The translations under genes and the position numbers were made by a program. The notes beneath the pieces were generated by a model. That model was given only the letters and a program-made list of their open reading frames with translations. It searched no databases and was not told the origin of the DNA. This document shows positions 18,481-28,866 of a stretch of 64,000 nt of DNA, one piece after another. Location: contig NC_035448.2 of the NCBI RefSeq assembly GCF_002127325.2, forward strand, positions 90,596,546 through 90,660,545, in the 5' to 3' direction. The stretch is from Helianthus annuus (taxonomy: Eukaryota; Streptophyta; Magnoliopsida; Asterales; Asteraceae). Each line of letters starts with the position of its first letter. Within the stretch, counting starts at the first letter, position 1.

Positions 18481-18698
18481 CACGGCCCCGTGTCCGCTGG
18501 ACACGGCCCCGTGCCCGTCTGACATTCTCTCTCTTCATTAATTGTAATTGCGAATTACAATTAATGCACCTGCTGTACTTTCAACACGCCCCCGTGTCCG
18601 CTGGGCACGGCCCCGTGGTGAGCAATGGAAGCTTCTACTGGTTTGTCTTTTCTGCTGCTTCCTGGGCACGCCCCCGTGTTCACTGGACACGGGGCGTG
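18481..18698. repeat. three CACG-N4-CGTG dyad pairs, Athila left LTR
   Basis: Dyads at 18481/18502, 18585/18606 and 18667/18688. Every pair is spaced exactly 21 bp start to start with a 9-base spacer. The last member has a 3-base core (CACGGGGCGTG). Confidence 0.9.
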
Positions 18699-18948
18699 TT
18701 CAGACTCTGTTCTCTTCTTCTTTGTCTTGGGAGGTGCCGTTGAGGGTCCGGGCAGTTTACTTTTGTTCCTTTTCTTGTATTTATGATAGAATTAGGGGTC
18801 TTTTTGCTTCTTTTGTGATTTTGAGCTCATTTCATCCTGAAAATACAAAAGGAAGACAAAAACACTCTTTTTCCAACATTAGTACTTAAAAAGGGTTAGT
18901 TTTATGCCTTAATTGATGTGTTTTATATGTTGCATTTTACACACATCA

Positions 18949-18989
18949 AATACCCCCACACTTGAACTTTTGCTTGTCCTCAAGCAAAA
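18949..18989 (-). other. Athila polypurine tract with upstream hairpin
   Basis: On the element strand TGTGGGGGTATT (18960-18949) abuts the 3' LTR and serves as the plus-strand primer. Eight bases upstream is a perfect 9-bp hairpin, TTTTGCTTG-AGGA-CAAGCAAAA (18989-18968). Confidence 0.85.
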
Positions 18990-20218
18990 CTCTTTTAATG
19001 TGGCTTTACACTCCCAAATGGAATAGGTAGAAGAGAAGTTTTTTAACTTGTCCTAGAGTGTCGGGAATCCAAGGTTTGTATAGGTTCTATTTTTATTTTA
19101 TTTACAATCTTATTCGTCATGGTTTATTTTGAACTTTTCATAAGATAAACTACTTAATTGGGCATAGCATGCCTTATTAAAATTCCATTTATATACAAGT
19201 TCACATACCTCACGGGAGATCACTCAATCACTCGGCCGAAGGTGTATATTTAAGTGAATCGCTCGAGAGCGGCACGGATTTACATTCTCCATATGCTTGC
19301 CAAGCGATCAATCCTCCTCCTTTTTAACTTTTTACCTTTGTAAATATCAAGAGGTCTTTTGGGGTGAAGGCTTGGGTTTAAAGGTGGGTGGTTGGTTAGT
19401 GGTTAGTGAAAAGGGCGAAAATCGTAACAAGTGTCGGTTTTCGTGAAATACCTTATTTATGGTGACATTTATTTTTTTGAAGTATTTCTCCAAACAAGCT
19501 TTTTGTAGCTTATGTTTGTTTTTGACTTCATCATTTTTTTTTTTTTTTTTGATCACCTTAAATGGTATGTTTATGAAAAACCGAGTTTGTTACTAAAATA
19601 AAGGTAAAAAAAAATGAAAAAGGTTTTTGGTGGGTAAAAAAATTGTTTTGGGGGTAATGAAATGAAAGGTTTAGGCTCAAAGGGGTTTTCTAGGGGGATT
19701 TTGGGTAGGTAAAAGAAAATGAAAAATAATGGTTTTGAAAGAAAAATAGTTAGTCCTAATGCCTCCATCATTTACTTACTTGGGTTTAAGTTGGTAAGGA
19801 CCGGGAATGTATCGTCGTGGCAAGTTCTAGATTTGTAAAGACCGAGCGGCTATTCACACAAGAAACGAAAAATGAGCATTTAATCTAAATGTGTGTATTT
19901 TTATGCTCAATAAAGGCTCAAAACTCACTTTTTGTGGGAATGGGTTTTTTAATGTGATCAAGCATATATAATCGAATTTTAGCTAGACTTGTTATACCGG
20001 TTCATAATTTTCTTATGTTAGTTCTTTTTATCACGACGCTATCGGTTGTAAGTTTGTAAAAATATAACCCTTTTATAACTTGTTATTCCCAACTTAAACT
20101 AAGACAAGTAAATAATAAAAATGAAAAAGTTTTTGAAAAAATTTGGGGTGTTTAGCGGTTCCAATAGAGTTTTGTGTAAGGCTTGTTTTAGGATTTTGCA
20201 AAATTCCAAGGTTTTAGC

Positions 20219-20258
20219 ATCCCCCCCACACTTAAATTACACATTGTCCTCAATGTGT
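20219..20258 (-). other. second PPT-like tract with AGGA hairpin
   Basis: Element strand: hairpin ACACATTG-AGGA-CAATGTGT (20258-20239), then AATTTAAGTGTGGGGGGG. This repeats the layout of the terminal PPT, with the same AGGA loop, a different stem and the same AAGTGTGGGGG ending. Confidence 0.7.
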
Positions 20259-20337
20259 CCAAAAATAGAGTTTTTGGTTGATTAGAATATGTAAAAGTGT
20301 GTTTAAAAACAAAGATTTGTGTTACTGGCACTCTGGA

Positions 20338-20524
20338 CACGGCCCCGTGTCCATTGGACACGGCCCCGTGGCGAACTGCCAGTAACGAAAAACTTACAGA
20401 GGGTGAACACGGGGGCGTGTTGGGTGAACACGGCCACGTGTCCGACAAAAATCTGCAGGTCAGTAGCCAAACAGCAGAACTGGGAGATGGACACGGGGGC
20501 GTGTCGGCTGGGCACGTCCCCGTG
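20338..20524. repeat. three CACG-N4-CGTG dyad pairs, after env-like ORF
   Basis: Dyads at 20338/20359, 20408/20429 and 20492/20513, each pair 21 bp apart. Core variants GGCCCC, GGGGGC, GGCCAC and GTCCCC keep the outer CACG and CGTG. Confidence 0.9.
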
Positions 20525-20847
20525 TGGACAGTCTGTTAGCCAGAAAAATAGGGTTTTCTCCCGGTTTCTTCCTCCTAGGGCTGTGAGTGCTAATGTTTAG
20601 CATTCTAACTCTTGCGTTGCACCTGTTCAAGCATTCAATACCATCCAACCAAGCACAAACCATCCTAATCTTACCATAGTCAAATATTATCCAAACATAA
20701 AGTAAAAACAAAATAAAGATAAAAAGTAGTTAAGGAAAGTAAATTGTCTTGACAAATGGCACGCAGGCCATGAATTGTTCGATGGATAAGAAGGGTAACC
20801 AAACCTGTGGGCTCATCACCAGCTAGCCCTTTGCTCCTCCCTGCCTC

Positions 20848-26985: not shown

Positions 26986-27028
26986 AAGTGTAAGTGTAAC
27001 CTCTTGAGTATCGATCCATAGGAATCAC
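26640..27028 (-). pseudogene. Athila Tyr/Pro-repeat segment upstream of pol (gag remnant?)
   Basis: In the frame starting at 27028 (MIPMDRYSRGYTYTYDEDDY) the protein is a degenerate tandem repeat of about 17-20 residues built on YEEPRYEPPSSYSY. It is Tyr, Glu, Pro and Ser rich. Pol continues in another frame after about 26640, so a frameshift probably joins them. It could be the C-terminal tail of a lost Gag; no capsid core or zinc knuckle is visible. Uncertain. Confidence 0.45.
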
Positions 27029-27398
27029 TCAACAGACTACAACTGAGTCTCGGGACCAGAAAACAAAAATAAAGACGGAAACAGAAGCTGGACACGGCCC
27101 CGTGTTGAGTGAACACGGCCCCGTGTTCAGGGACTGTATCTGGGCGTTTTAATTAAATTAACTGGTCACGTTGAGCACGGGGGCGTGTTGAGTGAACACG
27201 GCCCCGTGGTCAGACTCTGTATCTGGGTATCTACTCTAAAAATATGCAGCACGGGGGCGTGTTCAGCGAGCACGGCCCCGTGTTCAGGCTACTGTAAATG
27301 CAAAACTAAGCTAAAATGCAGAAAAAATGCGTGCGTTTTAAAAAGGTTTTGAAAAACTGATTAGGCCGTTGATTTTAAGCTTTCTTAAAATCCTTGTG
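27029..27398 (-). other. Athila leader between PBS and first ORF
   Basis: About 370 bp, non-coding, with three dyad pairs. A full Gag coding region would be expected from here but is absent. Confidence 0.75.
27093..27282. repeat. three CACG-N4-CGTG dyad pairs in Athila leader
   Basis: Dyads at 27093/27114, 27176/27197 and 27250/27271, each pair 21 bp apart; spacers TTGAGTGAA (twice) and TTCAGCGAG. Confidence 0.9.
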
Positions 27399-27416
27399 TC
27401 CCCGGCAGCGGCGCCA
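27399..27416 (-). other. Athila primer-binding site (tRNA-Asp type)
   Basis: Element strand TGGCGCCGCTGCCGGGGA, six bases from the LTR. It matches the 3' end of plant tRNA-Asp as I recall it, with one difference (CGTTG expected). Confidence 0.82.
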
Positions 27417-28620
27417 AAAACTTGATGTGCGTAAGTGTGTATATGTTTTTAGATGTTTATTTAAGCCCTTTTTACACTTTTAGCCAAGTTTTAAATTTAT
27501 AAAACACGATATTTACTAACACTAAACACACATATGGGCAAGTGCACCCATCGTGGACGTAGTATAGTGTTGGTAAGATACCGAGGTCGTCCAAGGACAC
27601 AAGAGCTTTTAATACCGGTTTATCCTCAACGTCTAATCAAATCAAAAAGTTAGAAAAATGTTTTAAACTAAGAAAAATAAAAACTAACTAAATGCTGAAA
27701 AATAAAATAAAATAAAAACAGATAGACAAGATGAATCACTTGGATCCGACACGTGTATTAGTATAACCTTTGATTATTTTCGCACTTTTGCACTTGTTTA
27801 AGAGATTATCTTAGTTATTGTAGTAGGCCCCTCTTTTGAAGGCGACGTTACCCTCAACCCAGTAGTTTGAGTCAGCAAGGATACAATCCTAAAGGGTCGG
27901 ATTATTGAAAGATAATGAATTAAGTTATTAATGCAAATTATGGTAGGCCCCGTTTTCGGCGGTGACGTTACCCTCGACTAAGTAGTCTGAGTCAGCAGGG
28001 ATACAGTCCTAAATAGCCGGGTTATAGTATTAATAGTAGTTAGCTTATGAGGGGGTCAAAGAGTTTGGCTCCCCGCCATCCAATACCCATGGGCATTGAA
28101 GGCGGTCCTATTAAATTTGACCCAGGTCCCAAGCAGGACCTCTAAACGCTGAACAAGGGCAAGACCTTTACCAAACCATTCCCTTAACCCCCGACCGGGT
28201 AGCCAACATACCTCCATATAGACCGTGGAGATATGAATGGTGAAAATCTTTTATTTTATATAGACAGTAAAATAATGCCAAGACACCACGGACAAACGAT
28301 AAGGAAAGATCACCTTCAACATAAGTAACTAGTTATTAAAGTCATTAATACAAAACCAAATAAAAAGTGCAAAAGATTAAAAATAAAAAGTATTATACTA
28401 AACACTTGTCTTCACCAAGTGATGTAAGAGACTTAGGCAAACATGGCCTTGATTGTCAAGAACTCTTACGATCAATCTTGGATCCCGAGACGACTCACAC
28501 ACTCTATGATGGACAATGGATGATGGTGGTGGATGATGGTGTTATGGTGGTGATGGGTGGTGGATGAAGTGTGAGAGAGGTGGTGTGCCAAGGGATGAGA
28601 GAGAATGGAACCAAGCTCCT

Positions 28621-28630
28621 CTATTTATAG
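28621..28630 (-). promoter_or_regulatory. TATA box in Athila promoter LTR
   Basis: CTATAAATAG on the element strand. The nearest dyad pair starts 18 bp upstream (28649), so the dyads sit at core-promoter-proximal positions. Transcription would start near 28590-28600. Confidence 0.68.
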
Positions 28631-28648
28631 GCTGAACAGAACGCTGGA

Positions 28649-28866
28649 CACGGCCCCGTGTCCGCTGGACACGGCCCCGTGCCCGTCTGACATTCTCTCT
28701 CTTCATTAATTGTAATTGCGAATTACAATTAATGCACCTGCTGTACTTTCAACACGCCCCCGTGTCCGCTGGGCACGGCCCCGTGGTGAGCAATGGAAGC
28801 TTCTACTGGTTTGTCTTTTCTGCTGCTTCCTGGGCACGCCCCCGTGTTCACTGGACACGGGGCGTG
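28649..28866. repeat. three CACG-N4-CGTG dyad pairs, Athila promoter LTR
   Basis: Dyads at 28649/28670, 28753/28774 and 28835/28856, same spacing as the left LTR, all upstream of the TATA box. Confidence 0.9.

What the first reader, a model, noticed from the sequence alone, without database searches (positions are those of the whole stretch)
18481..28866. Fourteen paired CACG-N4-CGTG dyads, always 21 bp apart, in the non-coding parts of one Athila element
Seen directly: 28 copies of a 12-bp dyad with outer half-sites CACG and CGTG and a variable GC-rich centre (GGCCCC, GCCCCC, GGGGGC, GTCCCC, GGCCAC). All occur as pairs with a 9-base spacer, so starts are 21 bp apart in every pair: three per LTR, three after the env-like ORF, two in the pol-env intron, three in the leader. 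None lies in the pol or env-like coding region. In the LTR the first pair starts 18 bp upstream of the TATA box. A spacing of 21 bp is two helical turns, so two dimers could bind the same DNA face. The centres drift while the half-sites stay, as expected for a protein-binding site. They are also CpG-dense and hairpin-capable. I know of no named description.
Basis: partly seen in the sequence, partly recalled or inferred. Interest (0 to 1): 0.87.

Follow-up and report, generated by a model that had tools for sequence, protein, structure and literature searches.

The report
Paired palindromes in sunflower Athila retrotransposons
The sunflower genome holds 77,167 exact copies of a paired palindrome, and nearly all of the copies looked at lie in or beside the non-coding parts of Athila jumping genes, where the half-sites and the nine-base gap survive between diverged copies; the pair is likely a protein-binding control site of the element.

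Summary
The window carries one complete Athila copy (minus strand, 17255-29116). It has 26 exact CACG-N4-CGTG dyads, where 0.23 are expected by chance, and 2 more with a 3-base centre. They form 14 pairs, all 21 bp start to start. The LTRs are identical, so 11 pairs are independent. The host is sunflower: genome contig lengths equal those of Helianthus annuus records. The exact pair occurs 77,167 times genome-wide, against 5 for the pattern read backwards.

In fetched copies the fixed quantity is the 9-base spacer. Centres may be 3 or 4 bases, so the start spacing can be 20. Half-sites are kept between lineages better than other G/C or CpG positions of the same LTR. After insertion, dyad CpGs mutate no more slowly than other CpGs. 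This points to selection in the replicating lineage, not local protection.

Best reading: a composite palindromic binding site upstream of the LTR TATA box and in the other non-coding parts, comparable to Sirevirus repeated-motif boxes but in a Ty3/gypsy lineage and strictly paired. No binding was tested. A foldback hairpin, favoured on the strand antisense to gag-pol, is a live rival. Binding by the element's own extra protein is the boldest untested reading.

The parts
17255..18948 (-). 3' LTR of the Athila element
   Evidence: 100 % identical to 27423-29116; BLAST gives 17254-18948 / 27422-29116, one base trimmed by the termini; 5-bp target duplication TCTTT at 17250-17254 and 29117-29121
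27423..29116 (-). 5' LTR of the Athila element
18452..18461 (-). TATA box CTATAAATAG (second copy 28620-28629 in the other LTR)
   Evidence: sequence; TATTTATAG kept in 15 of 15 aligned LTR rows
18481..18513 (.). LTR pair a, upstream of TATA in element sense (copy at 28649-28681)
18585..18617 (.). LTR pair b (copy at 28753-28785)
18667..18698 (.). LTR pair c, second dyad with a 3-base centre (copy at 28835-28866)
20338..20370 (.). pair post1, between extra ORF and 3' LTR
20408..20440 (.). pair post2
20492..20524 (.). pair post3
22063..22095 (.). pair int1, just upstream of the extra ORF
22618..22650 (.). pair int2, just after pol; 5 dyads in copy L085, one in L086
27093..27125 (.). leader pair 1
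27176..27208 (.). leader pair 2
27250..27282 (.). leader pair 3
28649..28681 (.). pair a in the 5' LTR
28753..28785 (.). pair b in the 5' LTR
28835..28866 (.). pair c in the 5' LTR
20848..22011 (-). extra ORF (env-like / aORF), open stop to stop, 387 codons
   Evidence: PF03078 ATHILA E 6.8e-6, above its cut-off
22795..27024 (-). gag-pol open frame; order RT, RNase H, integrase
27399..27416 (-). primer binding site TGGCGCC...
   Evidence: sequence; the tRNA-Asp assignment is recalled, not tested
18953..18961 (-). polypurine tract GTGTGGGGG
   Evidence: sequence

Best explanation
Each pair is one composite palindrome (CACG-N3/4-CGTG, nine bases, CACG-N3/4-CGTG) in the non-coding parts of a sunflower Athila retrotransposon, and it is likely a binding site for a sequence-specific protein that would control the element's transcription. 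Shown: position, copy number, fixed spacer, and half-sites conserved between diverged copies although their CpGs are not spared by mutation after insertion. Inferred: that a protein reads the half-sites, that it acts as an enhancer from U3 just upstream of TATA and from the leader, and that the pair before the extra ORF does the same for that ORF. The module probably arose by tandem duplication of a 21-bp unit and was then copied around the element. Which protein binds, a host factor or the element's own extra protein, is open.
For: 26 exact dyads against 0.23 expected; 77,167 exact pairs in the 3.01-Gb genome against 5 for the backwards pattern. Spacer 9 in 73 of 80 dyad neighbours at most 30 bp apart. 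Between lineages, with the best pair of each of six LTR copies dropped, half-site bases are kept 167/191 against 980/1320 other G/C bases (P 4e-5), CpG bases 82/96 against 49/91 (P 3e-6); in leader, post and int regions half-sites are kept 384/389, spacers 184/225, the rest 3316/3757. After insertion (5' against 3' LTR, five elements) dyad CpG bases change 9/126 against 18/366 elsewhere, P 0.37. TATA in 15 of 15 aligned LTR rows with the first pair beside it. Precedent: Sirevirus repeated motifs upstream of TATA and before env (PMC2829016).
Against: As 12-bp windows the six LTR dyads rank only 118-353 of 638 in the LTR, so other blocks are at least as conserved. Centres of 3 or 4 bases would shift the half-sites of a rigid dimer by one base. 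Copies also lie downstream of the start, after pol and after the extra ORF. Flanks are strand-asymmetric (51 G-T against 9 A-C mirrored pairs), not expected of a symmetric duplex site. Nine of the eleven aligned copies were chosen for carrying an exact pair, and one old element (L088) supplies most post-insertion changes. No binding data.
Confidence: 0.5

Rival explanations
1. The pair acts as a single-stranded foldback: one hairpin of about 40-57 bases with a 3-base loop, on the strand antisense to gag-pol, i.e. minus-strand cDNA during reverse transcription or an antisense RNA.
For: All 22 strand folds of the 11 modules give one long hairpin, more stable than two short ones in 22 of 22. Mirrored positions about the pair centre co-vary at two places: spacer 2-8 paired in 36 of 47 modules against 23.1 by shuffling (0 of 2000 shuffles), outer flank 29 against 19.6 (P 0.0045); own-dyad extensions do not. 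Mirrored non-Watson-Crick pairs are 51 G-T and 9 A-C on the + strand. Fold z-scores are stronger on that strand in 5 of 5 regions with RNA and 4 of 5 with DNA parameters.
Against: Half-site letters themselves are kept, not just their pairing. Swapping arms among the 11 modules of this copy does not weaken folding significantly (P 0.10-0.64 over both strands). The covariation shuffles ignore relatedness, 22 position pairs were tested, and one tandem-homogenisation control (L1-L1) is itself significant, P 0.0045.
Confidence: 0.2
2. A satellite seed without function: a 21-bp palindromic unit duplicated by slippage and spread inside the element by template switching.
For: Tandem Repeats Finder calls a 21-bp repeat at three of the 14 pairs. 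Unit number varies at int2: two dyads here, five in L085, one in L086; L079 has extra units at LTR pair c and L088 a three-dyad array. Flanks such as TTCAG..CTGT recur after several modules.
Against: Half-sites are conserved between lineages beyond other G/C and CpG bases although they mutate after insertion. Two dyads per module and a 9-base spacer prevail. No 21-bp dyad array in the coding frames.
Confidence: 0.16
3. The modules matter mainly to host silencing: their hairpins feed siRNA production or their CpGs attract methylation, as proposed for maize Sirevirus palindromes.
For: Maize palindrome-rich LTR regions are small-RNA hotspots (passages of PMC10760457 and PMC5311732). Post-insertion changes in exact dyads are C/T or G/A in 10 of 11. 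The 11 modules hold 50 of the 348 CpGs of the element without its 5' LTR, in 363 of 10,168 bp.
Against: It explains a cost, not why the element keeps the letters. Dyad CpGs do not decay detectably faster than other CpGs. No small-RNA or methylation data at hand.
Confidence: 0.08

Closest known systems
Sirevirus repeated motifs (RM boxes), PMC2829016 (passages and section 9 read); maize follow-up seen only through passages of PMC10760457 and PMC5311732
   Same: Short CG-rich palindromes, many per element, clustered in the LTR upstream of TATA and again upstream of the env-like gene; conserved core with variable centre.
   Different: Those are Ty1/copia elements and the paper calls the feature Sirevirus-specific. 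Here: Ty3/gypsy Athila, half-site CACG/CGTG, fixed pairs with a 9-base spacer, and copies also in the leader and after the extra ORF.
VANC target motifs of VANDAL transposons, PMC5735166 (passages read)
   Same: Short motif repeated in the non-coding parts of a transposon that also encodes an extra protein.
   Different: VANC binding and demethylation were shown by experiment there; here no binding and no methylation were tested, the motif is palindromic, and the extra ORF matches only ATHILA/Transposase_32 above noise.
Tandem repeats between pol and 3' LTR of Retand elements, PMC11963269 (passages read)
   Same: Short repeats in the region between pol and 3' LTR of plant gypsy elements.
   Different: That paper counts arrays of three or more copies; here two units per module, also in LTR and leader, with the same half-sites throughout the element.
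Epigenetically distinct sunflower Athila clades, PMC12844716 (outline with abstract, passages, figure legends read)
   Same: Same host and lineage; cluster 2 has lowered LTR methylation and the highest GC; the paper leaves open whether Athila extra ORFs shape methylation.
   Different: The passages read name no such motif; whether this element belongs to cluster 2 was not tested.

Membership tests
Athila lineage (Ty3/gypsy) | pol order RT, RNase H, integrase (gypsy order) | tested here: met
   RT 584-740, RNase H 804-931, integrase 1039-1206 in the frame
Athila lineage (Ty3/gypsy) | ATHILA-family extra ORF 3' of pol | tested here: met
   PF03078, 25.6 bits against cut-off 20.2; 25 of 28 aligned homologues match it at E up to 1
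Athila lineage (Ty3/gypsy) | RT placed in the Athila clade by phylogeny | not tested
   no RT tree was built
Sirevirus with RM boxes | Ty1/copia element (integrase before RT) | tested here: not met
   integrase lies after RT and RNase H
Sirevirus with RM boxes | palindrome with CGG-CCG core in the boxes | tested here: not met
   present in CACGGCCCCGTG, absent from CACGGGGGCGTG and CACGCCCCCGTG
Sirevirus with RM boxes | cluster upstream of the LTR TATA box and copies upstream of env | tested here: met
   three LTR pairs, two pairs between pol and extra ORF; but also leader and post-ORF pairs
VANC-like anti-silencing system | element-encoded protein binds the motif and lowers methylation | not testable with these tools
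   needs gel shift and methylation data
VANC-like anti-silencing system | motif CpGs protected from methylation-type decay | tested here: inconclusive
   dyad CpG changes 9/126 against 18/366 elsewhere after insertion, P 0.37: no support, small sample
Retrotransposon-borne satellite array | arrays of three or more units | tested here: not met
   two dyads in 14 of 14 window pairs; longer arrays only in single fetched copies (L079, L085, L088)

The most novel reading that the evidence does not exclude
A retrotransposon version of the VANC system: the Athila extra-ORF protein, dimerised by its long C-terminal helix, binds the paired palindromes in LTR, leader and the gaps on either side of its own gene and keeps the element expressible, so that motif and protein diverge together clade by clade.
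Probability: 0.12. Interest if true: 0.88.

Novelty: new variant of a known kind. Interest (0 to 1): 0.62.

Why it matters
Palindromic regulatory boxes were described as special to copia Sireviruses (PMC2829016); the same design, with a fixed pair geometry, sits here in a gypsy lineage and occurs at tens of thousands of places in a crop genome. If bound by a host factor it would be a large dispersed reservoir of control sites; if bound by the element's own protein it would help to answer the question, left open in PMC12844716, of what shapes methylation in sunflower Athila clades. Either is directly testable.
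Full report
WHAT IS THERE. The window holds one complete Athila element on the minus strand. LTRs are 17255-18948 and 27423-29116 (BLAST pairs 17254-18948 with 27422-29116 at 100 %; the termini trim one base). The target duplication is TCTTT, the PBS starts TGGCGCC, the PPT is GTGTGGGGG. gag-pol is 22795-27024 and an extra ORF with PF03078 ATHILA is 20848-22011. 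Of 71 homologues of that ORF, 64 are named Helianthus, one Smallanthus, six unnamed. Contig lengths of the window's genome equal those of H. annuus XRQr2 records (C11 189,830,405; C8 167,167,940). Host: sunflower.

THE DYADS. 26 exact CACGN4CGTG occur, against 0.23 expected, plus two with a 3-base centre. They make 14 pairs, 11 of them independent because the LTRs are identical. Among all 4-base half-sites with gaps 0-10 seen at least five times in the window, CACG with gap 4 is the most over-represented (91-fold). Tandem Repeats Finder calls three of the 14 pairs a 21-bp repeat of about two copies. Among the 11 pairs, 16 of 16 half-site columns are invariant, 0 of 8 centre, 2 of 9 spacer and 0 of 24 flank columns (hypergeometric 1.3e-7 over the 33 core columns, which ignores relatedness and that the search pattern itself demands the half-sites).

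GENOME-WIDE. The exact pair occurs 77,167 times in 3.01 Gb, against 5 for the pattern read backwards. Twenty stretches were fetched: ten around the first listed pairs of C1, ten at round coordinates chosen without regard to the motif. All ten C1 stretches carry homology to this Athila LTR. Of the ten blind stretches one (L090) does, and it carries four modules; the other nine have no LTR homology and no module. With up to two mismatches, a 9-base spacer and 3- or 4-base centres there are 86 modules in L079-L098 and none in five shuffles each of three loci. Of 51 exact pairs, 45 lie in homologues of the non-coding pieces, 4 within 300 bp of one, 2 in neither, and none was classed to an ORF homologue.

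SPACER, NOT 21. In L079-L098 plus the window up to 27421 (second LTR left out), dyad neighbours up to 30 bp apart number 80: 61 with two 4-base centres and spacer 9; 12 with one 3-base centre and spacer 9; 2 with spacer 10 (both LTRs of one element); 1 with spacer 23; 4 second neighbours in arrays. In L090 each of the four modules has one 3-base centre and a 9-base spacer, two of them with a mutated half-site (read from the sequence printed; one search counts four). So start spacing is 20 or 21 and the spacer is the constant.

CONSERVATION. LTR copies keep the three sites in place. Half-site bases kept against the window, with identity of the rest of the aligned LTR part: L083, L084 and L086/L087 48/48 and L085 47/48 (96-97 %), L079 48/48 (85 %), L080 45/48 (81 %), L081 47/48 (78 %), L088 41/48 and 39/47 (75 and 76 %), L082 41/48 (68 %). 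Because these stretches were chosen for an exact pair, the best pair of each of the six most diverged rows was dropped: 167/191 half-site bases against 980/1320 other G/C (P 4e-5), and CpG bases 82/96 against 49/91 (P 3e-6). In leader (5 copies), post (3) and int (2) regions: half-sites 384/389, centres 184/195, spacer 184/225, rest 3316/3757, rest CpG 177/207. Against: as 12-bp windows the LTR dyads rank only 118-353 of 638, so other LTR blocks are at least as conserved.

MUTATION AFTER INSERTION. In five elements with both LTRs, 16 of 364 dyad bases (3- and 4-base centres) and 88 of 8125 others differ; at G/C bases 16/303 against 82/3210 (P 0.01); at CpG bases 9/126 against 18/366 (P 0.37). 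One search counts 11 of 104 substitutions in exact dyads (P 0.0012 by length). One old element (L088) gives most of this; without it the CpG rates are 1/96 and 3/292, and the all-base contrast is 3/284 against 18/6551 (P 0.054). Dyads are thus not seen to be shielded from mutation, and their retention between lineages is best explained by selection on copies that replicate. The same result gives no support to local hypomethylation.

SYMMETRY AND STRAND. The 11 modules fold as one long hairpin on either strand. In 47 distinct modules, mirrored positions about the pair centre co-vary at two places (spacer 2-8; flank L2-R2), while own-dyad extensions do not; 22 position pairs were tested (modules with a 3-base centre and two exact pairs without a neighbouring element piece were not in the set). 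Shuffles ignore relatedness, one homogenisation control is also significant, and arm swapping within the 11 window modules is not. In the table, the derived states at spacer 2-8 counted by eye per site are three double changes, six T-G and one C-A. Mirrored non-Watson-Crick pairs are 51 G-T and 9 A-C on the + strand, with 154 Watson-Crick and 44 other, and the + strand (antisense to gag-pol, the sense of minus-strand cDNA) folds with the stronger z-score in 5 of 5 regions with RNA and 4 of 5 with DNA parameters. This asymmetry is unexplained by a symmetric duplex site and keeps the foldback rival alive.

THE EXTRA PROTEIN. With 46 sequences the model reaches pLDDT 72.0, pTM 0.65, with a 53-residue helix 323-375. 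Residues 140-260 have a computed pI of 10.1 and the whole protein 6.3; a simple scan found no K/R cluster. No fold match. PMC11728184 (passages) reports a sunflower Athila extra ORF related to PF20167/PF03078 with a predicted nuclear localisation signal. Dimerisation and DNA binding are inference only.

LITERATURE. Sirevirus RM boxes (PMC2829016) are the closest precedent; maize palindrome regions draw small RNAs (PMC10760457, PMC5311732; the 2016 original was seen only as cited there); VANC motifs (PMC5735166) are the model for the bold case. No description of this motif was found, all limited to the open library and read mostly as listings.

VERDICT. A real, genome-wide feature of sunflower Athila elements, with evidence of selection on its half-sites; most likely a composite protein-binding control site; a new variant of the palindromic-box design known from Sireviruses; function not shown.

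Noticed in passing
all modules: Strand asymmetry: T is nearly fixed after the first dyad while its mirror base is A or G, giving far more G-T than A-C mirrored pairs on the strand antisense to gag-pol; unexplained.
   Followed up: partly
L085:100-195: Five dyads in a perfect 21-bp period at the int2 position of another copy; L086 has a single dyad there, the window two.
   Followed up: partly
26536-26577: A second 21-bp tandem pair with a CG palindrome (CTCGCGCGAG-like), inside the gag-pol frame, unrelated half-sites.
   Followed up: no
18536-18566: Strong 14-bp-arm inverted repeat CATTAATTGTAATTGCGAATTACAATTAATG between LTR pairs a and b.
   Followed up: no
18968-18989 and 20239-20258: Two inverted repeats with the same GTCCTC centre, one beside the polypurine tract and one in the region before it; recall the inverted repeat at the PPT/LTR junction of Sireviruses.
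   Followed up: no
15553-17257, 29117-29325 and 41631-43537: The Athila copy is inserted in an element whose uninterrupted relative lies at 41631-43537 (96-98 % identity).
   Followed up: no
45570-54148: Another LTR element with 2.47-kb LTRs at 99.6 % identity; no paired CACG dyads.
   Followed up: no
22669-22698: Run of 30 T just beside pair int2.
   Followed up: no
L043:1914-1946: A cyanobacterium (Brasilonema) carries the same CACGGCCCCGTG pair with a 9-base spacer, apparently in a palindromic repeat of its own.
   Followed up: no
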